Below, in pieces: positions 43,423 through 55,539 of a DNA stretch of 64,000 nucleotides. The stretch comes from Fibrobacter succinogenes (GTDB taxonomy: Bacteria > Fibrobacterota > Fibrobacteria > Fibrobacterales > Fibrobacteraceae): positions 1 through 64,000 of the forward strand of contig CACWPM010000004.1 of NCBI GenBank assembly GCA_902762795.1, given 5' to 3'. The notes below the pieces were generated by a model. The model ran no database searches. It saw only the letters and a list, made by a program, of their open reading frames with translations, and had not been told where the DNA came from. How positions within the stretch are numbered: position 1 is the first letter of the stretch; every line of letters starts with the position of its first letter. The position numbers and the translations under genes were made by a program.

Positions 43423-44868
43423 TTATTCATTTTTTATTTCAGAACGATTAAGCAATTTATTTACAAATAACAGAATTATATCATTTTTTAATAAAAATAG
43501 AAATACAAGATATGACAGAAAACCTGAAACTAGAGACATAAACAATCCTAGAATAACCCCAATACTAATTATTCGTGACACATAAACAACAGCCCCCATT
43601 AAGACTGAACTGATTAGCATGCTGAAAACATAACTCTTTTTTAGTACAATTCGGAAAAATTTGTGAGAATACGAAATTAATATAATCGTTATCAATAATT
43701 CCGCAATAACAGAAGCAATTGCAGCGCCATTATGCTTATAGACAGGAATTAAAAACATGTTTATACAAAAATTCACAATAGCACCAAAAACAGTAGCAAT
43801 CAGTATTTTCGATTCATTATTTGTTGCCATTAAAATTAAATGTCCTAGGAAATAGGCAATAGAAAAAATAATAATTAAAGGTGAAAGAATTTCTAAAGTA
43901 GTTGTAGCCTCCATAAATGACTCTCCAAATAATACAGGAACGATACTATCCGCAAGAAATTCAATTCCTATTACACAAGGAATGGAAACAACCAAAATAA
44001 TCCTTAGTCCTAACATTAGCAATTGATTAACATCTTCAGACTTCTTTTCTTTCAAATACATACTAATTCTAGGATAAAACGGAGCTACTAAAGCAATTGC
44101 TAAGGTATGAACTAATCGTACTATTTTAACGGAATTTGAATAATACCCAACATAGACATCTCCATGAAAATGCTGAATCATCAAAGTATCTAACATTGTA
44201 TAAATTTCAGTAGCCAATGTAGATGCTAATAGTACAAAAACAGGTTTTAAGTGTTTTTTTAAGTTAACATCTTTTACGGTAAACTTAACCTTGTTCCTTA
44301 GATTCCAAACATTGAGGATATAGTTACCAGCTGTTGCCATACAGAGAATAAAGCCATATTTAACATAATCAGATGTATTCTGAACAAAAATAAGCATCGC
44401 TATGAAAGACAAGATCTTCATAATTATACTTCTTGTAGCGATGTATTTATATTCTTCTATTCCTTGATAAAACCAATCAATATTGAATACATTCAAAACT
44501 AATTGTATTCCCATTACATTTAGCAGGAACCTTTTTTCAGAAAAATACCCCCAAAAATTAATTAATGAATAATAAGCAATAACACAAACAATTGAAGAAC
44601 AAAGGTTAATAAAAAATAATTCCGAAAAAGCTTTTGATCTGTCTTTAGCAGAAAAATTCCGAGCAATTATTTTAATTCCATATTGAGGAAGACCAAGAGC
44701 AGCAATTACAGCAATATAGGATACTATTGTGGAAGCATAATTAACTTTACCAACCCCTTCTGCTAAAAGCGCCCTTGATATATACGTCGTAGTTATGAGT
44801 GGAAAAAGAGCCGTGAAGCCTTTATATATAACATTATATATGGAATTCTTTGCTAAAGATTTTCCCAT
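43423..44868 (-). CDS. Wzx-type O-antigen flippase (polysaccharide biosynthesis protein)
   Basis: The membrane protein has about 481 residues and 12-14 predicted helices, of the MOP exporter superfamily. It starts SLAKNSIYNVIYKGFTALFPLITTTYISRALG-like, with the typical GVGKVNYASTIVSYIAVIAALGLPQYG segment. It would flip lipid-linked repeat units to the periplasm. ATG 44868 lies five bases after the preceding GT stop codon. It is very AT-rich compared with genes outside the locus and is the last gene before the terminator. Confidence 0.9.
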   Translation of the reverse strand: MGKSLAKNSIYNVIYKGFTALFPLITTTYISRALLAEGVGKVNYASTIVSYIAVIAALGLPQYGIKIIARNFSAKDRSKAFSELFFINLCSSIVCVIAYYSLINFWGYFSEKRFLLNVMGIQLVLNVFNIDWFYQGIEEYKYIATRSIIMKILSFIAMLIFVQNTSDYVKYGFILCMATAGNYILNVWNLRNKVKFTVKDVNLKKHLKPVFVLLASTLATEIYTMLDTLMIQHFHGDVYVGYYSNSVKIVRLVHTLAIALVAPFYPRISMYLKEKKSEDVNQLLMLGLRIILVVSIPCVIGIEFLADSIVPVLFGESFMEATTTLEILSPLIIIFSIAYFLGHLILMATNNESKILIATVFGAIVNFCINMFLIPVYKHNGAAIASVIAELLITIILISYSHKFFRIVLKKSYVFSMLISSVLMGAVVYVSRIISIGVILGLFMSLVSGFLSYLVFLFLLKNDIILLFVNKLLNRSEIKNE

Positions 44869-44873
44869 AACAA

Positions 44874-45605
44874 TTATCTTTCTCGCTTCAGCATTCTTTT
44901 TAGACTTCTTGCACAATACCGTCCATAGTATTTAAAACTATTGGTATAAGTCCAACCACAAGGATAATATATTTTCTTATATTCTTTTTTGTATATTTTT
45001 CTGAGAATGTTTTTGTATTTGTCAAAATTTCGATCCATCGTTCCATGTGAACGATGCCAAGCGTTAGCACGAACGACAACAACAGGTATATGCCTTTGAG
45101 CAGCTCTTAAAGTAAGATCAACTCCATATAAATGCCAACCATCAAAATTTTTTTGATCAAACCCTCCAACTGCTTTATATATATCTCTATTCATAGCTAT
45201 AAAGCATTCATCACAAGTAAGAACATCAAACCAATCCTTGCCTTTAAAATCATAATCATAAATTCTGTCTTTATTTTGACCATCCGAAATTGTAGAAACA
45301 ATCTTTCCACCATCAGAGAAGCGACCGGCAAAACCAACAATGCATCCACATTCAGCGGCATTAACAACTCTATCTATTGTAATTTGATCATACAATATTA
45401 TATCTTGATGAAGAAAAACAACTATTTCAGAAGTACTTTTATCAAATCCATAATTCAATGCCGCGGCGGCCGAAGGAAACCGATTACTACTATTGTCTAT
45501 CAGCACCCACTCAATTTCATAATCGACTAAACAATCTGCACTTTTCTGCAAATCATCAAGCATATCTTCTTTTGTATAGCAACATATAAAAGATATCTTT
45601 TTCAT
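44874..45605 (-). CDS. Family 2-like glycosyltransferase
   Basis: The 243-residue protein begins KKISFICCYTKEDML and has a nucleotide-binding fold with IEWVLIDNSSN and the DxD-like FLHQDIIL. The acceptor-side LTCDECFIAMNRDIYKAVGGFD is typical of GT2-like enzymes, and WHLYGVDLTLRAAQ follows. It probably adds one sugar of the surface polysaccharide repeat; donor and linkage are unknown. It lies between wzy-like and wzx genes with short spacers. Confidence 0.83.
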   Translation of the reverse strand: MKKISFICCYTKEDMLDDLQKSADCLVDYEIEWVLIDNSSNRFPSAAAALNYGFDKSTSEIVVFLHQDIILYDQITIDRVVNAAECGCIVGFAGRFSDGGKIVSTISDGQNKDRIYDYDFKGKDWFDVLTCDECFIAMNRDIYKAVGGFDQKNFDGWHLYGVDLTLRAAQRHIPVVVVRANAWHRSHGTMDRNFDKYKNILRKIYKKEYKKIYYPCGWTYTNSFKYYGRYCARSLKRMLKRER

Positions 45606-48768: not shown

Positions 48769-49074
48769 TTACAATTTTATAATATGGAACTCGATAAATA
48801 ACATCACCCAAATACTTGATTTCATTGTCGAAAAAAACTTTTTATCTTGCCTTGACAACACTAGATACGTTGACGAAATATATTTAATTTTTTCAAGAGC
48901 AATTGAAAAGCCTGTATCAATTATATTAGAAGTTCGACCAGAATATTTTTTTGCACAAATCATTAACGTTCCCAAAAAAGAGAAACGCTTTAAAATATCA
49001 TAAACATTTTCAATGCAATAAAAACGTTCATTTTCTTCTTTTATTAACTGATTTGTAACAATTAGCACATTCAT
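48769..49074 (-). pseudogene. Truncated glycosyltransferase N-terminus
   Basis: The 101 residues begin MNVLIVTNQLIKEENERFYC and continue with IENVYDILKRFSFLGTLMICAKKY, as in the N-terminal Rossmann half of GT4-like enzymes of 340-370 residues. The frame stops after FIEFHIIKL, and nothing further of a donor-binding half is seen before the next gene. Its ATG overlaps the stop codon of the opine-dehydrogenase-like gene as ATGA, so it is still coupled. It may be a recent deletion remnant or a short functional protein. Confidence 0.6.
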
Positions 49075-50090
49075 TTGCAAGTTTTCTCCATACATTTTTC
49101 CATACCCCATTCATAAACAACATCTATTTTCGGGGTGTCAACGCCATGTTTTTGAGCCAAATCTACAATGAAGCGCAACCCAAAGGGAAAATCTTCCGTG
49201 AAATAGCGGCTTTCAAAATCAGGAACCCAGCCATTTTCCACTTCTTTCATAGGAGCCTTGATTGTCTCAAAAGCTTTGATGGAACTTAACTTAGTTGCAA
49301 GGGATTTTGCATCTGTCGATTCGTAGTATTCTAAAAGCGAAGGAATCGACTTCTGGTTCATTGGAAGCTTTTCAAGCAAGCGCATGAATTCGGCATCCAT
49401 ATCTATTAACCACTGAGCGGCATCTTCCGTCCATTCCTTATAAAAAAGAATGCAATGATCATAAGGTTTTCCATCCCAATTATGCCACATACTGTAAAGA
49501 CGCCCCGTATGCAAAATCGGGTTACTATTTGTCAGACAAGCTTCATAAAAGCTCTGTAGCAAATTAACTGGCGTATTAAACAAATTCTCGATAAAAGTTC
49601 TAAATTCTTCGCAATTATCGATATTTTCCACAGCAATATTCAACGATGACTTATATCCCAACAGATTTGCTGTTTTACCATATTCCACCACGCGGGCAAT
49701 AAAAGGGACTCGCTGAAAACCGAATAGCTTATTTTTTTCTCCAAAAACTTCATGTGCAAAGAAGAAGAACCCTGTACTACTGACAATAGTGCCGACCACG
49801 GTCTTTTCAGAAAGATACGGTTTGATTTGCTTCAACGTCTGCTTTATCAAGAACCCCGGCAAGCAGAGTATAACCACATCCGCATCGGGAATAACTTCTT
49901 GCGGATTAGAGGAAATTCGACCCAAGCAGCCATTAAAGACTTTTCCATTCGCATCCTTTACTGAAATTACGTGACACCATTTTGCAGGATGATTTGTCAA
50001 CAAGTCTACAGAAATATTTTCCTGAGAAGAAAGAAAACCTATGCAAACATGCCCCAGAGCCCCTCCGCCACAAATCGTTATCTTCTTCAT
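49071..50090 (-). CDS. Octopine/nopaline dehydrogenase family protein
   Basis: The 339-residue protein has an N-terminal NAD(P)-binding ICGGGALGHVCIGF motif, VVILCLPGF, and a C-terminal helical opine dehydrogenase domain with NSNPILHTGRLYSMWHN, the His/Asn-containing active-site region. The family reductively joins an amino group to a 2-oxo acid. Its ATG overlaps the stop codon of the cytidylyltransferase/CobD-like fusion (ATGA), implying a shared pathway. Its substrate is probably an intermediate made by that fusion; this is inference. Confidence 0.85.
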   Translation of the reverse strand: MKKITICGGGALGHVCIGFLSSQENISVDLLTNHPAKWCHVISVKDANGKVFNGCLGRISSNPQEVIPDADVVILCLPGFLIKQTLKQIKPYLSEKTVVGTIVSSTGFFFFAHEVFGEKNKLFGFQRVPFIARVVEYGKTANLLGYKSSLNIAVENIDNCEEFRTFIENLFNTPVNLLQSFYEACLTNSNPILHTGRLYSMWHNWDGKPYDHCILFYKEWTEDAAQWLIDMDAEFMRLLEKLPMNQKSIPSLLEYYESTDAKSLATKLSSIKAFETIKAPMKEVENGWVPDFESRYFTEDFPFGLRFIVDLAQKHGVDTPKIDVVYEWGMEKCMEKTCK

Positions 50091-51901
50091 CTGTCTAGCT
50101 CCTTAAAGGCATTGAGAAGTTTCACGTTGTCTTCGTGGCTACGAACAGCTATCCGCATATACTGTTTGCCGTCGAAGCCCTTCTTATCGCTGCAATCGCG
50201 AGTTAAGATGTTGTACTTTTTGAGCATTGTGAGTACAAGTTCATTTGCATTTTTAGGCGGAAGAATTTCGCACAAGAAATAGTTTGCTTCCGAAGGCATC
50301 ACCCTCAGGAACTTAATCTTGCACAGTTCGTTTCCAAAGGCATCCCGTTCTTCGATGAACCGTTCACAGGCAACCTTGTAGTCCTTTTCATACTTAGTAT
50401 AGATCTGCATGAAGAATTCGGCGAAACTGTTGAGATTCCATATACTCACGCTCTTCTTCATTTTGGCAATAAGGTTCTTGTCTGCAGAACAGAGAATGCC
50501 CAAACGGATTCCGGGAACTCCGTAGCTCTTGGAAATGCTCTTCATCACCACAAGGTGTGGATAATCCTCTAAGATTCTGTCATCCAGAAGGGTATTTTCT
50601 TCATAGCCATGGCTGAAGTCAACAAAACTTTCGTCCACAATCAAACGACAGCCATTTTCTTCGCACCACTTCGCCAGAACGAGAATATCCTTTTTCGGGA
50701 TAAAGTTTCCAGACGGGTTGTCAGGATTGATCAGCAGCAGGTTATCAGCATGGTTATCGCCAAAAAAATTCATCAAGTCTTGCACAGAATAGCGATAATC
50801 GGCATTGTCCGGAACGAATGTGACAAGAGTTTCAGGATTGCGACGGTTCGGGTATTCCTCAAAAGTGGGGCGGGTCACGCCAAGCGTACCGGGGAGTTCC
50901 TCCATCAGGGCCTTAATCAGTTCGGCAGCACCGTTGCCGGGAATCACGTACTCTTCCTTCACCCCCCAGCATTTAGAAGCGAGAAGAGTATTGACCTTCA
51001 TGCCAGAGGGATATTCGCCAACGAGAGTCTTGAAGTTGGCGTTCATTTCATCAATGATGCGGGAATAACGAAAATACGGATTTACCAGATAACAATAATC
51101 TAGCATCTTCGGGAAACGCCAAAATCCGCCATAACGACCATAATACTTGCGAAGAACATCCTTCTCTTCCGCAAACAGAGCCTCGGCAATATCAAGGTCT
51201 TGCTTATCGTCAATCTCGTACCACTTCTCGTTGGTGATGGGCAAAGCCTTGAGGTCGCTCTTGCTCAAGAAGGATATAATGCGCAGTACGTTTTCGTAGT
51301 ATTCGTTGTTGCCGACGGCCTTGCAGTATGCATCCAGGAATGGCACATACTTGGTACGCGAGAATTCCTTGCTGAACTTATAGATGTTGACTGTCTTGTA
51401 ATAGTTGTTTACTTCTTCATAGCTAAATGCGGCCTTCGTCACAAAATTGACAATATTATTGTCCCTGTCAATCTTGACCATGGTTCCGTCCATCCAAGTT
51501 TCATACTTCGCGACCAGAGCCAAATTGGGGAACGGATTTTTCAGGAGAAGGTCAAACATTCCGTCATCAAAAATCAGGTCACTTTCGATTAAGAGCGTGT
51601 CGTCTTCCTGCAGCTGTTTTTTCGCAAGCGCAAGCGAATAAATATTATTCGTCTTGTCATAAATTGGATTGTTTACAAACTCTATCTGCAGTCCGCTACG
51701 TTCTGCACCAAGATAATCCATTAATTTTTGACCTTCATAACCAACAACGACTACAACACGGTTCAAGTTCAGCTTACTCAGTTGATTAAGCGTTCGGTCA
51801 ATCAAAGGAGTCCCATTCACCGGTACCATGCATTTCGTGTTATTCTTGGTGTATTCACCAAGTCGTTTTCCCATGCCTGCTGCCAAAATTATTGCTTGCA
51901 T
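50087..51901 (-). CDS. Fusion of LicC-like nucleotidyltransferase and CobD-like PLP enzyme
   Basis: The 604-residue protein has two parts. Residues 1-235 form an NTP-transferase domain (LAAGMGKRLGEYTKNNTKCM, LLIESDLIFDDG, WYEIDDKQDLDIA) like LicC, which makes CDP-choline. Residues about 255-604 form a fold type I PLP domain with GNGAAELIKAL, NPDNPSGNFIP, IVDESFVDF and SISKSYGVPGIRLG, where K458 binds PLP. The C-terminal ILTRDCSDKKG and MRIAVRS fit CobD-type phosphothreonine or phosphoserine decarboxylases better than HisC. It may decarboxylate a phospho-amino acid and CDP-activate the product (inferred). AAGGATC precedes the ATG. Confidence 0.85.
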   Translation of the reverse strand: MQAIILAAGMGKRLGEYTKNNTKCMVPVNGTPLIDRTLNQLSKLNLNRVVVVVGYEGQKLMDYLGAERSGLQIEFVNNPIYDKTNNIYSLALAKKQLQEDDTLLIESDLIFDDGMFDLLLKNPFPNLALVAKYETWMDGTMVKIDRDNNIVNFVTKAAFSYEEVNNYYKTVNIYKFSKEFSRTKYVPFLDAYCKAVGNNEYYENVLRIISFLSKSDLKALPITNEKWYEIDDKQDLDIAEALFAEEKDVLRKYYGRYGGFWRFPKMLDYCYLVNPYFRYSRIIDEMNANFKTLVGEYPSGMKVNTLLASKCWGVKEEYVIPGNGAAELIKALMEELPGTLGVTRPTFEEYPNRRNPETLVTFVPDNADYRYSVQDLMNFFGDNHADNLLLINPDNPSGNFIPKKDILVLAKWCEENGCRLIVDESFVDFSHGYEENTLLDDRILEDYPHLVVMKSISKSYGVPGIRLGILCSADKNLIAKMKKSVSIWNLNSFAEFFMQIYTKYEKDYKVACERFIEERDAFGNELCKIKFLRVMPSEANYFLCEILPPKNANELVLTMLKKYNILTRDCSDKKGFDGKQYMRIAVRSHEDNVKLLNAFKELDR

Positions 51902-51916
51902 AAAGATCCTTAAATA

Positions 51917-52669
51917 TTAATGCAGATTGTCAAAATGAGGTGATACTCGTTTTTCAATGGGAGGCAACTGCATATAGTCGCCATACTCTTTTTTTAAATA
52001 CCAATCAAAATCTTTAATTATCGGAAACATAGCATCTTCAAATTTATGATATTGCAAATTCTCGAAAAAATCCGCAGGTTTAAACCAATACACATTATGA
52101 AGAATGGAACAAGAATAATAATCAAAATCGTTCGACAGTTTGTAATACTTAGCAAATTTATTTTCCATTATACGACAAATTTTCACAGTCAAACTACACG
52201 GTATGGCTTTTAAAAATATTTTTACTATTTTTTCAACAAAAGAACCTCTTTCCAAAGGAACATTTCGTCGAGACATTAAAACCAAGATTATTCCGTATAA
52301 CTGTTGAATTTTCCGAGCAATTTTATGACGAGGACATTTATCTAACGGAAAAACATCTACAAAAAAAGGCGTTTCTGAATTACGGTTCTGCACCCGTTTA
52401 ACTTTCGTAAAGGTATTTGTGCAATTTGGATTTGTTTGCAAATTATCCAAATAGTATTGTTCATAATTCCAGGTATTCAAAAACCGATTATAATCATCAC
52501 GAGGCATATAGATATCAAGGTCATCATCCCATGGAATAAATCCATTATGCCTAATAGCTCCTAGCAATGTCCCAAAGGCTAAAGAATATTTAATATGATT
52601 CTTTTGACAATGAGTGTCAATATCCTTCAGAATCTGTAAAACAGATAATTGAACTTCACGTAGCGTCAT
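51917..52669 (-). CDS. LicD-family phosphotransferase
   Basis: The 250-residue protein starts with a helical region followed by FGTLLGAIRHNGFIPWDDD and DIYMPRDDY (33-60), the LicD signature with clustered Asp residues for metal. LicD proteins transfer phosphocholine or similar groups from CDP carriers to glycans. Together with the LicC-like domain next door this suggests that the polysaccharide carries a phosphodiester decoration. It overlaps the GT4 stop codon by 14 bases and has AGGA upstream. Confidence 0.9.
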   Translation of the reverse strand: MTLREVQLSVLQILKDIDTHCQKNHIKYSLAFGTLLGAIRHNGFIPWDDDLDIYMPRDDYNRFLNTWNYEQYYLDNLQTNPNCTNTFTKVKRVQNRNSETPFFVDVFPLDKCPRHKIARKIQQLYGIILVLMSRRNVPLERGSFVEKIVKIFLKAIPCSLTVKICRIMENKFAKYYKLSNDFDYYSCSILHNVYWFKPADFFENLQYHKFEDAMFPIIKDFDWYLKKEYGDYMQLPPIEKRVSPHFDNLH

Positions 52670-53813
52670 TCTGACAATTCCTGTAAATTTTTTTCATTAT
52701 GCCACAGATTTTTTCGACATCAAAATTTTTCATCACTTCTTGATTGACTACACTCATTTCATCAGCATTCCCTGATACAATCTTTTTCATTCCTTCGGCA
52801 AAGCCATCGATATCATGGCTATCATATAAATATCCACCCTTACCATTTTCAATTAAGTCTATATTGCCTCTAATTCTGCTGCAAACAACAGGTAATCCAG
52901 CCGCCATCGCTTCCATCAAAGCGACTGGCAGGCCCTCTTGCAAACTCGGAAATGCAAAAGCGTCAACTGTATGCAGGATTTCTTTGACATCTTTACGATA
53001 GCCGGCAAAAACAACTCTATTTTGTAAACCAAGTTCTGCAACAAGGTTCTTTAGACGTTCCTCTTCTTCACCAAAGCCAACAATCAAGTATTTAACTTTC
53101 TCATTAATAATTTTAGCAAGAGCCCTGATTATAACTTCATGATTTTTTCTTATCGAAATTTGCCCGACAGACATAAAAACGAAATCGCCATCGGAAAAAC
53201 CGAAACTTGAACGCATTTGCGTTCTATCTACTACAGTGTTCTTGATTTCTTCGGTATGCACGCCTATACCGGGAACGTATTCAACTTGCTTAGCATACAT
53301 CTTTTGCGCATTACGAAAATCTTCTTGATTAATGGTTATCAAGACATCCGTATACTTAGAGCACAATTTTTCAATGGGATAATAAACCACCCATGCTATT
53401 TTCGATGAGCCCTTGAAAAAATGAAAACCATGCGCAGTGTAAATTACTTTCGTCCCTGTTTTTCGAGCTTTACGGCACGCAAGTCTGCAAATGACACCGC
53501 CAATTGGAGAATGACAATGGACAATTTGGTACTTATTTTCTTCTACAAGGTGTTTTACCAACTTGTACGATTTGACAATATTCCCGATTTTGCTTATAGA
53601 ACGAGGAATCGGGATTTGAAAAGTACCGATATTCAGCTTCTTGAGTTCTTCACGGTATTCGTTAACGCGTTCCTGTGAAGTAATCGAGCCTTCTTCAAAA
53701 TTTGTTGCTACATCAACAGCGTATCCGAGCGATTGCAAGATACGGATGTTGTCTGCATTGAACAGATCTATCATCGAAGCAACAGAAGCTAGCTGTAAGG
53801 CTCTTTTTTGCAT
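52656..53813 (-). CDS. Family 4 glycosyltransferase (EpsD-like)
   Basis: The GT-B enzyme has about 385 residues. It has an N-terminal fold with ASMIDLFNADNIRILQSLGY, then HCHSPIGGVICRLAC and VIYTAHGFHFFKG. The donor-binding half has FVFMSVGQISIRKNHEVIIRA and FPSLQEGLPVALMEAMAAGL (E-x7-E). ATG 53813 is preceded by GGTGGAG and overlaps the stop codon of the nuclease-like gene as TGATG. It transfers a sugar in repeat-unit assembly; the donor is unknown. Confidence 0.9.
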   Translation of the reverse strand: MQKRALQLASVASMIDLFNADNIRILQSLGYAVDVATNFEEGSITSQERVNEYREELKKLNIGTFQIPIPRSISKIGNIVKSYKLVKHLVEENKYQIVHCHSPIGGVICRLACRKARKTGTKVIYTAHGFHFFKGSSKIAWVVYYPIEKLCSKYTDVLITINQEDFRNAQKMYAKQVEYVPGIGVHTEEIKNTVVDRTQMRSSFGFSDGDFVFMSVGQISIRKNHEVIIRALAKIINEKVKYLIVGFGEEEERLKNLVAELGLQNRVVFAGYRKDVKEILHTVDAFAFPSLQEGLPVALMEAMAAGLPVVCSRIRGNIDLIENGKGGYLYDSHDIDGFAEGMKKIVSGNADEMSVVNQEVMKNFDVEKICGIMKKIYRNCQNDAT

Positions 53814-54310
53814 CACTCCACCTCGATTGTATTCTGATACAAAAGTCTAAATCCGAACTTCGAACGGAATTCGTTCATCTCTACTTTATGCGATACCTGA
53901 AAATTCGGGTGCCTATGGTCCGCAATATACGCTTTGCGCGTTCCAAACACTTTGGGATCGTGATTGGCAACAAATTCATTAATTGTAGAAGCTAGTTGTT
54001 CCTTCGCATGTTTAAAATCGCTTTTCTTGCGATTTTTTATTTCAACAAATGCCAAATAGGAATTGTCCATCTTATGGAGCAAGCCTTCACTTAGGCTTAT
54101 CTGATTCCCATTTTTCTTTATAACAATATTCCTATCTATAGGGATAAAGTGCAACATGTGTGCAGAAGGATTTTTCACAATAGCATCCCACGGATCATCC
54201 GCATGATCCGTAGTTGTCCTGGCATATGGTTCGGCCTCGCGATCAATAATCCCGAAATGAACGTCATTGCGGGCAGGTTCCCTATTATACTTTGCTTCAA
54301 AGAAATCCAT
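53813..54310 (-). CDS. Probable PD-(D/E)XK-like partner of the AAA ATPase
   Basis: The 165-residue protein is not recognised as a named family. D82, E90 and K92 in KMDNSYLAFVEIKNRK, with Q105 in the next helix (HAKEQLAST), fit the D-x(n)-E-x-K core of PD-(D/E)XK nucleases. The ATG overlaps the ATPase stop codon by one base (TAATG), so the two form a unit. Such ATPase/nuclease pairs are common among defence systems. It is embedded within a polysaccharide operon, which is odd. Nuclease activity is inferred. Confidence 0.6.
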   Translation of the reverse strand: MDFFEAKYNREPARNDVHFGIIDREAEPYARTTTDHADDPWDAIVKNPSAHMLHFIPIDRNIVIKKNGNQISLSEGLLHKMDNSYLAFVEIKNRKKSDFKHAKEQLASTINEFVANHDPKVFGTRKAYIADHRHPNFQVSHKVEMNEFRSKFGFRLLYQNTIEVE

Positions 54311-55539
54311 TATCCCTCAACCTCGTCCTGGATTTCCAGCAAAGCATCAAAAAGGTCATTCGTTTCGCTTAACGCAGAATTCAAGAAATTCCTGTCGCTG
54401 GGGATTCCGTCGTAATTGTCTAGCAACCGAATTTCTCCTTCAGGCGAAATTTCGTATATGGCAACATCCTTCGGACGCACGGAGCCACTGCGAGGTACTA
54501 TGGAATCCATTCGATCCAGCAAAGCCTGCGATTTTGCAGATTGCTTTATTTCTGCCTTGAGCATACCCGCCTTGACGGCAAGAGTCAGGTAATTCAGCAT
54601 GTAAGGGCTATGGGTCGTAAAGACCAACTGGTTACCGGCAAGTTGGTTATTGACTTTCAGAAGTTCATTCAGCACAACCCGCTGTGTCTCGGGATAAAGG
54701 TTCTGTTCGGGTTCCTCGACAATATTCACCAAACGTCCATTGATGAAGTAGCGCGCCTCCACCTGCTTAATCAATGTTGTCCGCAAGAAATTGGACAAGG
54801 AGCGATCCTTCAAAATCTCCGCCACCATTTTTTCAGTCTTTTGTCGCTCAGCCCCGCTTGCAGCGTCCAACCCCGTTTTCTTATTTTCTTTAATCTTGTT
54901 AAGCAAATACCGCGTCACAACGACCATGGGAACCATAGACTGGAAACCGCTCGCCGCCTCGGTTATCTTTATTTTGAATTCAGAACCGTTCAGCCAAACA
55001 GAATCTGTTAACGGGTCATAAGTAACTTTGTAACCATTTAAGGGAAGCGCTATAGGTTCATTTGCATTGCGGAGCGCATTTGTATATTCATCAAAAAATA
55101 CAGAAAGAGAACCGAACAAATTTCGAATATCTTTCGCATCTTTCAAGGCAGTCATGAAATTACGTTCCGAAGGGATATACATGACCTGCGGGCGAACGAA
55201 ACTACGCGACTTTATTTCTTTTACACTTAAATTGCCCTTTACATAGGTAAAAGCAAATTTTGTTCCCTTAAAATAAAGGAAGGTGTCGGTTTTGAAATAG
55301 TTCTGTATATTATGGAACGCACAATACTTTTCGCGGAAATTTTTGGCTGTCAGTTCCTTGACATCGAAGTCCCCGCGCACCAAAGCCTTTTCGAGCCACA
55401 GAAAAGTCGAAAGCAGCTTAGCAATGGAACTTTTGCCAGACCCTTGCATACCACAAAAAACGGTGACCTTGTTTACTTTCAAGGGCAATCCGTTCTTGTT
55501 GGCGATAGGGCCAAAATTCTGTATCAAAAGTTCTTGCAT
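54310..55539 (-). CDS. AAA/ABC-type ATPase of the OLD/SMC-like group
   Basis: The 409-residue ATPase has Walker A GMQGSGKS (30-37), an ABC-like signature EAASGFQSMVPM, Walker B NIVEEPEQNLYPETQ and the switch His in FTTHSPYMLNY. The central part (about 60-190) is an insert of unknown fold. This layout matches AAA_21-type ATPases found beside nuclease-like partners. No TOPRIM domain is present in this chain. It lies 20 bases after the epimerase and is coupled to the gene at 53813. Role unknown. Confidence 0.82.
   Translation of the reverse strand: MQELLIQNFGPIANKNGLPLKVNKVTVFCGMQGSGKSSIAKLLSTFLWLEKALVRGDFDVKELTAKNFREKYCAFHNIQNYFKTDTFLYFKGTKFAFTYVKGNLSVKEIKSRSFVRPQVMYIPSERNFMTALKDAKDIRNLFGSLSVFFDEYTNALRNANEPIALPLNGYKVTYDPLTDSVWLNGSEFKIKITEAASGFQSMVPMVVVTRYLLNKIKENKKTGLDAASGAERQKTEKMVAEILKDRSLSNFLRTTLIKQVEARYFINGRLVNIVEEPEQNLYPETQRVVLNELLKVNNQLAGNQLVFTTHSPYMLNYLTLAVKAGMLKAEIKQSAKSQALLDRMDSIVPRSGSVRPKDVAIYEISPEGEIRLLDNYDGIPSDRNFLNSALSETNDLFDALLEIQDEVEG

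What the first reader, a model, noticed from the sequence alone, without database searches (positions are those of the whole stretch)
49071..52669. Possible CDP-opine or CDP-amino-alcohol decoration pathway in the polysaccharide locus
Three coupled genes encode LicD, a fusion of a LicC-like cytidylyltransferase with a PLP domain, and an octopine-dehydrogenase-like protein. The PLP domain resembles CobD-type phospho-amino-acid decarboxylases in its active-site segment (K458) and its ending (ILTRDCSDKKG, MRIAVRS). Chemistry suggested by the families: phosphoserine or phosphothreonine is decarboxylated to an amino-alcohol phosphate, which is activated with CTP. The amino group may then be condensed with a 2-oxo acid, and LicD would transfer the product to the glycan. 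From memory, N-(1-carboxyethyl)ethanolamine phosphate is a known O-antigen substituent in some Proteus, which would fit. The order of steps is inference.
Basis: partly seen in the sequence, partly recalled or inferred. Interest (0 to 1): 0.85.

Follow-up and report, generated by a model that had tools for sequence, protein, structure and literature searches.

The report
Probable CDP-opine pathway for surface sugars
A gut Fibrobacter, like many gut Bacteroidales, carries a three-gene cassette that probably turns phosphoserine into CDP-ethanolamine, joins the amine to a keto acid and hangs the product on a surface polysaccharide; it would give an unexplained bacterial sugar ornament its first candidate pathway, but no chemistry has been shown.

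Summary
LicD, a LicC-like cytidylyltransferase fused to a PLP enzyme, and an octopine-dehydrogenase-like protein (ODH) lie in one tight operon in a Wzx/Wzy-type polysaccharide locus of a Fibrobacter genome. The trio is widespread. In 79 relatives, nearly all Bacteroidales, the gene directly after the fusion is ODH in 52, an unrelated imine-reductase family in 13, and never both. One locus encodes fusion and ODH as one protein; two encode ODH-LicD as one. The genome has serC, no choline kinase and no PEP mutase. Best reading: O-phosphoserine is cytidylylated and decarboxylated to CDP-ethanolamine, the amine is reductively joined to a 2-oxo acid, and LicD transfers the resulting opine phosphate to the glycan. 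The product type, N-(1-carboxyethyl)ethanolamine phosphate, is known in Proteus mirabilis O-antigens; no pathway for it turned up in the papers searched. No reaction has been assayed.

The parts
51917..52669 (-). LicD-family phosphotransferase (250 aa), proposed to transfer the CDP-activated headgroup to the glycan; carries the motif FIPWDDDLDI
   Evidence: PF04991 127 bits; only LicD gene in the genome; best NCBIfam relative is the CDP-choline-type transferase Mf1, below cut-off
50087..51901 (-). 604-aa fusion: LicC/PntC-like cytidylyltransferase plus CobD/SMUL_1544-like PLP decarboxylase
51167..51901 (-). N-terminal cytidylyltransferase domain (about residues 1-245). E106 and E203, invariant, align with the amine-contacting PntC E104/E196 and LicC D105/D192 positions
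50090..51130 (-). C-terminal PLP domain (about residues 258-604): D423, K458 (Schiff-base lysine, codon 50528-50530), R466, R583, R587; decarboxylase-clade motif W488-N-x-N; SMUL_1544-like segment C270-Y-L-x-N-P
49071..50090 (-). Octopine-dehydrogenase-family opine dehydrogenase (339 aa); H194 (codon 49509-49511) and R295 (codon 49206-49208) align with octopine dehydrogenase H212 and R324 and are invariant in 29 relatives
50087..50090 (-). ATGA overlap of fusion stop and ODH start (translational coupling)
52656..53816 (-). GT4 glycosyltransferase upstream in the same operon; overlaps the LicD start by 14 nt
43423..44916 (-). Wzx-like flippase of the polysaccharide locus
   Evidence: PF01943
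45613..46746 (-). EpsG/Wzy-like polymerase candidate (just below the Pfam cut-off)
   Evidence: PF14897 29.3 bits
56438..57193 (-). Initiating sugar-phosphate transferase of the locus
   Evidence: PF02397 2.2e-58

Best explanation
The trio is a CDP-opine decoration cassette. The fusion takes O-phospho-L-serine, attaches CMP from CTP (LicC/PntC-like half) and removes the carboxyl group (CobD/SMUL_1544-like half), giving CDP-ethanolamine; the order of these two steps is open, with cytidylylation first (CDP-serine intermediate) suggested by FrbH. The opine dehydrogenase then condenses the freed primary amine reductively with a 2-oxo acid, probably pyruvate, giving a CDP-linked N-(1-carboxyalkyl)ethanolamine. 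LicD transfers this headgroup as a phosphodiester to a sugar of the repeat unit before or during export. Shown here: gene content, coupling, domain fusions, fold and clade of each enzyme, conserved catalytic residues, and recurrence of the trio. Inferred: every substrate, every product and the step order.
For: PLP half: closest solved structure is SMUL_1544, 'a decarboxylase' (Z 35.0), then CobD (34.6), HisC about 31; profile 235 bits to 6oux, 163 to CobD, 106 to E. coli HisC; tree puts fusions with SMUL_1544 at 100/99 and rejects grouping with HisC, p 3.6e-8; CYLxNP segment shared with SMUL_1544 only. NTP half: 85-87 bits to LicC and PntC; Glu at both amine-contact positions, as in PntC, which binds a small primary amine. 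ODH: Z 36 to octopine dehydrogenase, model pLDDT 94, H212/R324 equivalents invariant. Coupling: ODH directly follows the fusion in 52 of 79 relatives, an unrelated imine-reductase family (OCD) in 13, never both; slot content changes at least 12 times on the fusion tree; fusion-ODH single protein in L123 and ODH-LicD single proteins in L082 and L095. Genome: serC present, no choline kinase, no PEP mutase. Precedents: Cj1436 makes ethanolamine phosphate from serine phosphate for the C. jejuni capsule (PMC12409886); FrbH is a cytidylyltransferase-decarboxylase fusion acting on 2-amino-4-phosphonobutyrate, which is the CH2 isostere of phosphoserine (PMC8976061); N-[(R)-1-carboxyethyl]ethanolamine phosphate occurs in P. 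mirabilis O-polysaccharides (PMC9630907).
Against: No enzyme of this group has been assayed and the glycan of this organism is unknown. The PLP half is below the CobD equivalog cut-off. SMUL_1544's reaction is called putative in the paper read. Divergent fusions also occur beside CDP-alcohol phosphatidyltransferases or DUF3413-sulfatase proteins, and a Bradyrhizobium relative lies beside a PEP mutase, so the wider family is not tied to one substrate. The ODH amine substrate and 2-oxo acid cannot be read from sequence. I could not test whether Proteus strains with the substituent carry these genes.
Confidence: 0.62

Rival explanations
1. The fusion and LicD make and attach plain ethanolamine phosphate; the opine dehydrogenase acts on something else, for example making an amino-acid opine such as N-(1-carboxyethyl)lysine that is amide-linked to a uronic acid.
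For: Some fusion loci have neither reductase, and in L091, L094, L098, L106 and L111 LicD takes the slot directly. A different Octopine_DH subtype sits with ATP-grasp genes in other Fibrobacter loci.
Against: ODH is directly after the fusion in 52 of 79 loci, fused to it in L123 and to LicD in L082/L095; window-type ODH was never found without the fusion in 61 Fibrobacter genomes; an unrelated imine reductase takes exactly the same slot.
Confidence: 0.18
2. The PLP half decarboxylates phosphothreonine (as CobD does), giving a CDP-1-amino-2-propanol headgroup.
For: CobD is the best curated family by HMM score and nearly ties SMUL_1544 in Z.
Against: Clades with SMUL_1544 at 100/99, and the pocket segment matches SMUL_1544 and not CobD; 72 bits closer to 6oux than to CobD.
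Confidence: 0.1
3. The PLP half is an aminotransferase making an amino-alcohol phosphate such as serinol phosphate, as Cj1437 does in C. jejuni, or a phosphonate transaminase like the AEPT half of PntC fusions.
For: PntC-AEPT (Tde1415) is a known cytidylyltransferase-aminotransferase fusion; the Bradyrhizobium relative lies beside PEP mutase.
Against: Class I CobD-type fold and decarboxylase clade, not class V; no PEP mutase in this genome: its two weak hits are a PanB-like and a radical-SAM-like protein, without the EDKxxxxxNS motif.
Confidence: 0.07
4. LicC-type phosphocholine decoration.
For: LicD and a LicC-like domain are present.
Against: No choline kinase family match in the genome; both amine-contact positions carry the PntC-type Glu instead of the LicC Asp; phosphocholine has no use for a decarboxylase or an opine dehydrogenase.
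Confidence: 0.03

Closest known systems
FrbH (FR-900098 biosynthesis)
   Same: N-terminal cytidylyltransferase fused to a C-terminal decarboxylase; substrate 2-amino-4-phosphonobutyrate is the CH2 isostere of phosphoserine (PMC8976061; the isostere relation is plain chemistry).
   Different: FrbH is in an antibiotic phosphonate pathway without LicD or an opine dehydrogenase.
SMUL_1544 (6oux), Sulfurospirillum multivorans norpseudo-B12 pathway
   Same: Closest solved relative of the PLP half by sequence, fold and tree; proposed to make ethanolamine phosphate (PMC4585668).
   Different: Stand-alone enzyme of cobamide synthesis; no cytidylyltransferase domain.
Cj1436 of the Campylobacter jejuni capsule locus
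   Same: Serine-phosphate decarboxylase that makes ethanolamine phosphate for a surface polysaccharide (PMC12409886).
   Different: Its product is amide-linked to glucuronic acid and later dephosphorylated, with no CDP activation, LicD or opine step. Sequence not compared here.
PntC-AEPT fusion Tde1415 (6pd1) and pneumococcal LicC
   Same: Homologous cytidylyltransferase domain; Tde1415 is also fused to a PLP enzyme, and CDP activation serves surface decoration.
   Different: The PLP half of Tde1415 is a class V transaminase making a C-P compound; LicC uses phosphocholine and has no fused PLP domain.
Octopine dehydrogenase (3c7a/3iqd)
   Same: Whole-length fold match (Z 36) and conserved catalytic His and Arg.
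   Different: Octopine dehydrogenase joins arginine and pyruvate in a scallop; the amine here is proposed to be a CDP- or phospho-ethanolamine.
N-[(R)-1-carboxyethyl]ethanolamine phosphate of Proteus mirabilis O-polysaccharide
   Same: Exactly the kind of substituent the trio should make (PMC9630907).
   Different: Known as a structure; no pathway for it was found in the papers searched, and Proteus genomes could not be searched.

Membership tests
CobD / phospho-amino-acid decarboxylase clade | Groups with CobD and SMUL_1544 and apart from HisC in a tree | tested here: met
   Clade support 100/99; grouping with HisC rejected p 3.6e-8
CobD / phospho-amino-acid decarboxylase clade | Clade motif W(N/S/A)xN where HisC has Y/F | tested here: met
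   W488-N-L-N; present in 6oux, 3ftb, 1lc5, 3fkd; absent in HisC
CobD (threonine-phosphate decarboxylase, TIGR01140 equivalog) | Score over the curated cut-off 290.55 bits | tested here: not met
   169 bits: related to CobD, not filed as CobD
SMUL_1544-type decarboxylase | Decarboxylates O-phosphoserine | not testable with these tools
   Needs an assay; sequence, fold and pocket segment match
LicC/PntC cytidylyltransferase | NTP_transf_3 fold with the GxGxRx..K signature and Mg-binding Asp | tested here: met
   LAAGMGKRLGEYTKNNTK at residues 6-23, E106-S-D108; 85-87 bits to LicC and PntC
PntC (AEP cytidylyltransferase) | Linked to a phosphonate pathway with PEP mutase | tested here: not met
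   No PEP mutase in the genome
FrbH | Cytidylyltransferase plus decarboxylase in one chain | tested here: met
   Domain order matches the published description
FrbH | Sequence homology of both halves to FrbH | not tested
   FrbH sequence not held
Octopine dehydrogenase family (PF02317) | Pfam match over cut-off, whole-length fold, catalytic His and Arg | tested here: met
   118.6 bits vs cut-off 30; Z 36; H194 and R295 invariant; the roles of H212/R324 are from memory
LicD family (PF04991) | Pfam match over cut-off with the WDDDLD motif | tested here: met
   127 bits vs cut-off 22.6
Lic-1 phosphocholine system | Choline kinase LicA | tested here: not met
   No PF01633 match in the genome

The most novel reading that the evidence does not exclude
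Decarboxylation and opine formation both take place on a nucleotide-bound amino acid (CDP-serine to CDP-ethanolamine to CDP-opine), and the reductase slot after the fusion is a swappable cassette. Opine dehydrogenases and unrelated OCD-type imine reductases would give stereoisomeric or differently branched headgroups, producing serotype-like diversity across gut Bacteroidales and Fibrobacter.
Probability: 0.28. Interest if true: 0.85.

Novelty: new variant of a known kind. Interest (0 to 1): 0.74.

Why it matters
CDP-activated phosphocholine and aminoethylphosphonate decorations are known, but no CDP-activated opine is known to me. This cassette gives a concrete, testable route to N-(1-carboxyethyl)ethanolamine phosphate, a substituent seen in Proteus O-antigens. 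It also explains a common but vaguely annotated fusion gene of gut Bacteroidales, and it predicts a zwitterionic or anionic headgroup on commensal surface glycans that immune receptors and phages could read.

Tried and rejected
Phosphonate reading: the two weak PEP-mutase hits in the genome are a PanB-like protein and a radical-SAM-like protein, with no EDKxxxxxNS motif. Phosphocholine reading: no choline kinase. HisC-like aminotransferase reading: rejected by tree and structure. Separate PLP and NTP genes near LicD in other Fibrobacter genomes (L039-L042) looked like a split version of the fusion, but their PLP partner lies outside the decarboxylase clade and lacks the W motif. The second Octopine_DH type in Fibrobacter (L144-L148) is only 20-34 bits from this ODH and lies in a different kind of locus. 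Attempts to reach Proteus genomes failed: the search centre must be a genome handle. The papers on FrbH and on the C. jejuni PLP enzymes that I tried by DOI from memory are not held. Literature searches for the combination found nothing. The first PLP tree held two wrongly cut reading frames (L186, L188) and was rebuilt without them.
Full report
WHAT IS THERE. The window lies in a 3.93-Mb genome (97% complete) whose relatives at 89-93% identity in this gene are named Fibrobacter. On the minus strand LicD (51917-52669), a 604-aa fusion (50087-51901) and an octopine-dehydrogenase-like protein (49071-50090) are in one tight run: 15 nt between LicD and the fusion, an ATGA overlap between the fusion and ODH, and a 14-nt overlap of LicD with an upstream glycosyltransferase. 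The neighbourhood holds a Wzx-like flippase, an EpsG/Wzy-like protein, several glycosyltransferases and an initiating sugar-phosphate transferase, so this is a polysaccharide locus.

THE FUSION. Residues 1 to about 245 form a LicC/PntC-type cytidylyltransferase: a profile of 34 relatives gives 87 bits to PntC (6pd1) and 85 to LicC (1jyk). In PntC two Glu residues (E104, E196) face the primary amine of aminoethylphosphonate, where LicC has Asp (D105, D192) and more room for choline (PMC6697681). The window protein has Glu at both places, E106 and E203, invariant in all 34 relatives. E106 aligns without ambiguity; E203 aligns with LicC D192 and within one residue of PntC E196. This favours a small primary amine over choline; it is a reading from alignment, not an assay.

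Residues from about 258 on are a class I PLP enzyme. The predicted structure (mean pLDDT 85; weak around 266-272) matches SMUL_1544 best (Z 35.0), then CobD structures (33.9-34.6), then HisC (about 31). In a 39-protein tree the fusions join SMUL_1544 at 100/99 inside a CobD-type clade at 100/99, and forcing them with HisC is rejected at p 3.6e-8. Two local signatures agree: W-N-x-N at 488-491 is shared with the solved CobD-type proteins and not with HisC, and C-Y-L-x-N-P at 270-275 is shared with SMUL_1544 while CobD has S-A-N-I-N-P and HisC S-N-E-N-P. SMUL_1544 was proposed to make ethanolamine phosphate for norpseudo-B12 (PMC4585668). The fusion scores below the CobD equivalog cut-off, so I do not call it CobD.

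THE OPINE DEHYDROGENASE. The model (pLDDT 94) matches octopine dehydrogenase over its whole length (Z 36.2, 332 residues, 25% identity). H194 and R295 align with octopine dehydrogenase H212 and R324, remembered as the catalytic base and the carboxylate anchor, and both are invariant in 29 relatives.

THE TRIO IS A RECURRING CASSETTE. A scan of 84,980 species genomes gave over 500 relatives; the 80 best are mostly rumen and gut Bacteroidales plus Fibrobacter. In the 79 with enough sequence downstream, the next gene on the same strand is ODH in 52 and an OCD/mu-crystallin-family protein in 13; in 14 it is neither, and of these L074 has ODH convergent and five have LicD in the slot (counts for L044-L123). 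No locus has both next to the fusion. OCD-family relatives with solved structures are imine or keto-acid reductases: pyrroline-2-carboxylate reductase, alanine dehydrogenase, iminosuccinate reductase, ketimine reductase. The two families are unrelated by Pfam assignment but make the same kind of bond, a C-N bond at C2 of a 2-oxo acid, which is what a step 'amine plus 2-oxo acid' needs. On a tree of 81 fusions the slot content changes at least 12 times and is no more clustered than shuffled labels, so the reductase is exchanged freely behind a conserved fusion. In L123 the fusion and ODH are one 946-aa open frame; in L082 and L095 (84% identical) ODH and LicD are one frame. These are metagenome assemblies, so the L123 single case could be a local error. 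In Fibrobacter the fusion is in 10 of 80 species, followed by ODH in six and by OCD in four. Window-type ODH was never found without the fusion in 61 Fibrobacter genomes. The window fusion is closer to some Bacteroidales proteins (82-83%, L047, L048) than to two Fibrobacter ones (75-77%), which suggests transfer between phyla.

OTHER PARTNERS OF THE FUSION FAMILY. More distant fusions (32-35% identity) sit beside a SAM methyltransferase and LicD in the cyanobacterium Gloeothece and CDP-alcohol phosphatidyltransferases in Rahnella and Priestia. Divergent fusions in other Fibrobacterota follow large membrane proteins, one of them (L191) DUF3413 plus sulfatase. A common product that is a CDP-linked primary amine, then N-alkylated, N-methylated or moved to different acceptors, would explain all of these. 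This is inference.

HOW IT PROBABLY WORKS. O-phosphoserine is available (serC present). The fusion adds CMP and removes CO2. The one described enzyme with this architecture, FrbH, cytidylylates 2-amino-4-phosphonobutyrate and then decarboxylates it (PMC8976061); that substrate is phosphoserine with CH2 in place of the ester oxygen. So CDP-serine may come first. Decarboxylation must precede the opine step, because a PLP enzyme needs the free primary amine to form its external aldimine (established chemistry). ODH then adds the 2-oxo acid, and LicD transfers the headgroup. The expected product type, N-[(R)-1-carboxyethyl]ethanolamine phosphate, is a known substituent of P. mirabilis O-polysaccharides (PMC9630907).

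WHAT SPEAKS AGAINST RIVALS. No PEP mutase and a class I decarboxylase-type PLP half argue against the phosphonate route of PntC-AEPT. No choline kinase argues against phosphocholine. Loci without a reductase show that plain ethanolamine phosphate is a likely variant elsewhere, but not in the window.

LIMITS. Nothing has been assayed. The glycan of this genome's organism is unknown. FrbH and Cj1436 sequences and Proteus genomes could not be compared. The papers available to me did not describe this trio; subscription journals are mostly missing from the library, so prior description cannot be excluded.

Noticed in passing
window 53813-55539 (-): A two-gene candidate phage-defence system (PADLOC PDC-M29A 484 bits, PDC-M29B 130 bits) is inserted inside the polysaccharide locus, between the sugar epimerase/transferase genes and the glycosyltransferase upstream of LicD.
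   Followed up: partly
window 48769-49110 (-): A 113-aa frame that overlaps the ODH end and matches no Pfam or NCBIfam family; possibly a truncated glycosyltransferase remnant.
   Followed up: no
L126 7992-11638 (Priestia megaterium pBM700): A distant fusion next to a CDP-alcohol phosphatidyltransferase, ATP-grasp genes and an extra 1-deoxy-xylulose-5-phosphate reductoisomerase gene, beside a lantibiotic cluster. The extra reductoisomerase could be self-resistance to a fosmidomycin-like product.
   Followed up: no
L127 4684-8737 (Bradyrhizobium sp. 187 plasmid): PEP mutase, LicC-like cytidylyltransferase, CDP-alcohol phosphatidyltransferase and a stand-alone CobD-type PLP enzyme that branches inside the fusion family: a candidate phosphonate-lipid or phosphonate cluster.
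   Followed up: partly
L144-L148: A second, distant Octopine_DH subtype in other Fibrobacter polysaccharide loci, next to DegT-like aminotransferase and ATP-grasp-like genes (names by eye from the sequence), without the fusion: a possible separate opine decoration.
   Followed up: partly
L191, L192, L193, L194: In other Fibrobacterota the fusion follows a large membrane protein, DUF3413 plus sulfatase in L191, which suggests a different, perhaps lipid-linked, acceptor.
   Followed up: partly
L124 9001-10833 (Fusobacterium vincentii): A fusion at 48% identity next to a formyltransferase-like gene, with LicD upstream within 5 kb and no opine dehydrogenase; the licC/licD genes without the rest of the lic operon reported in F. 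nucleatum polymorphum (PMC1924603) may be of this type.
   Followed up: no
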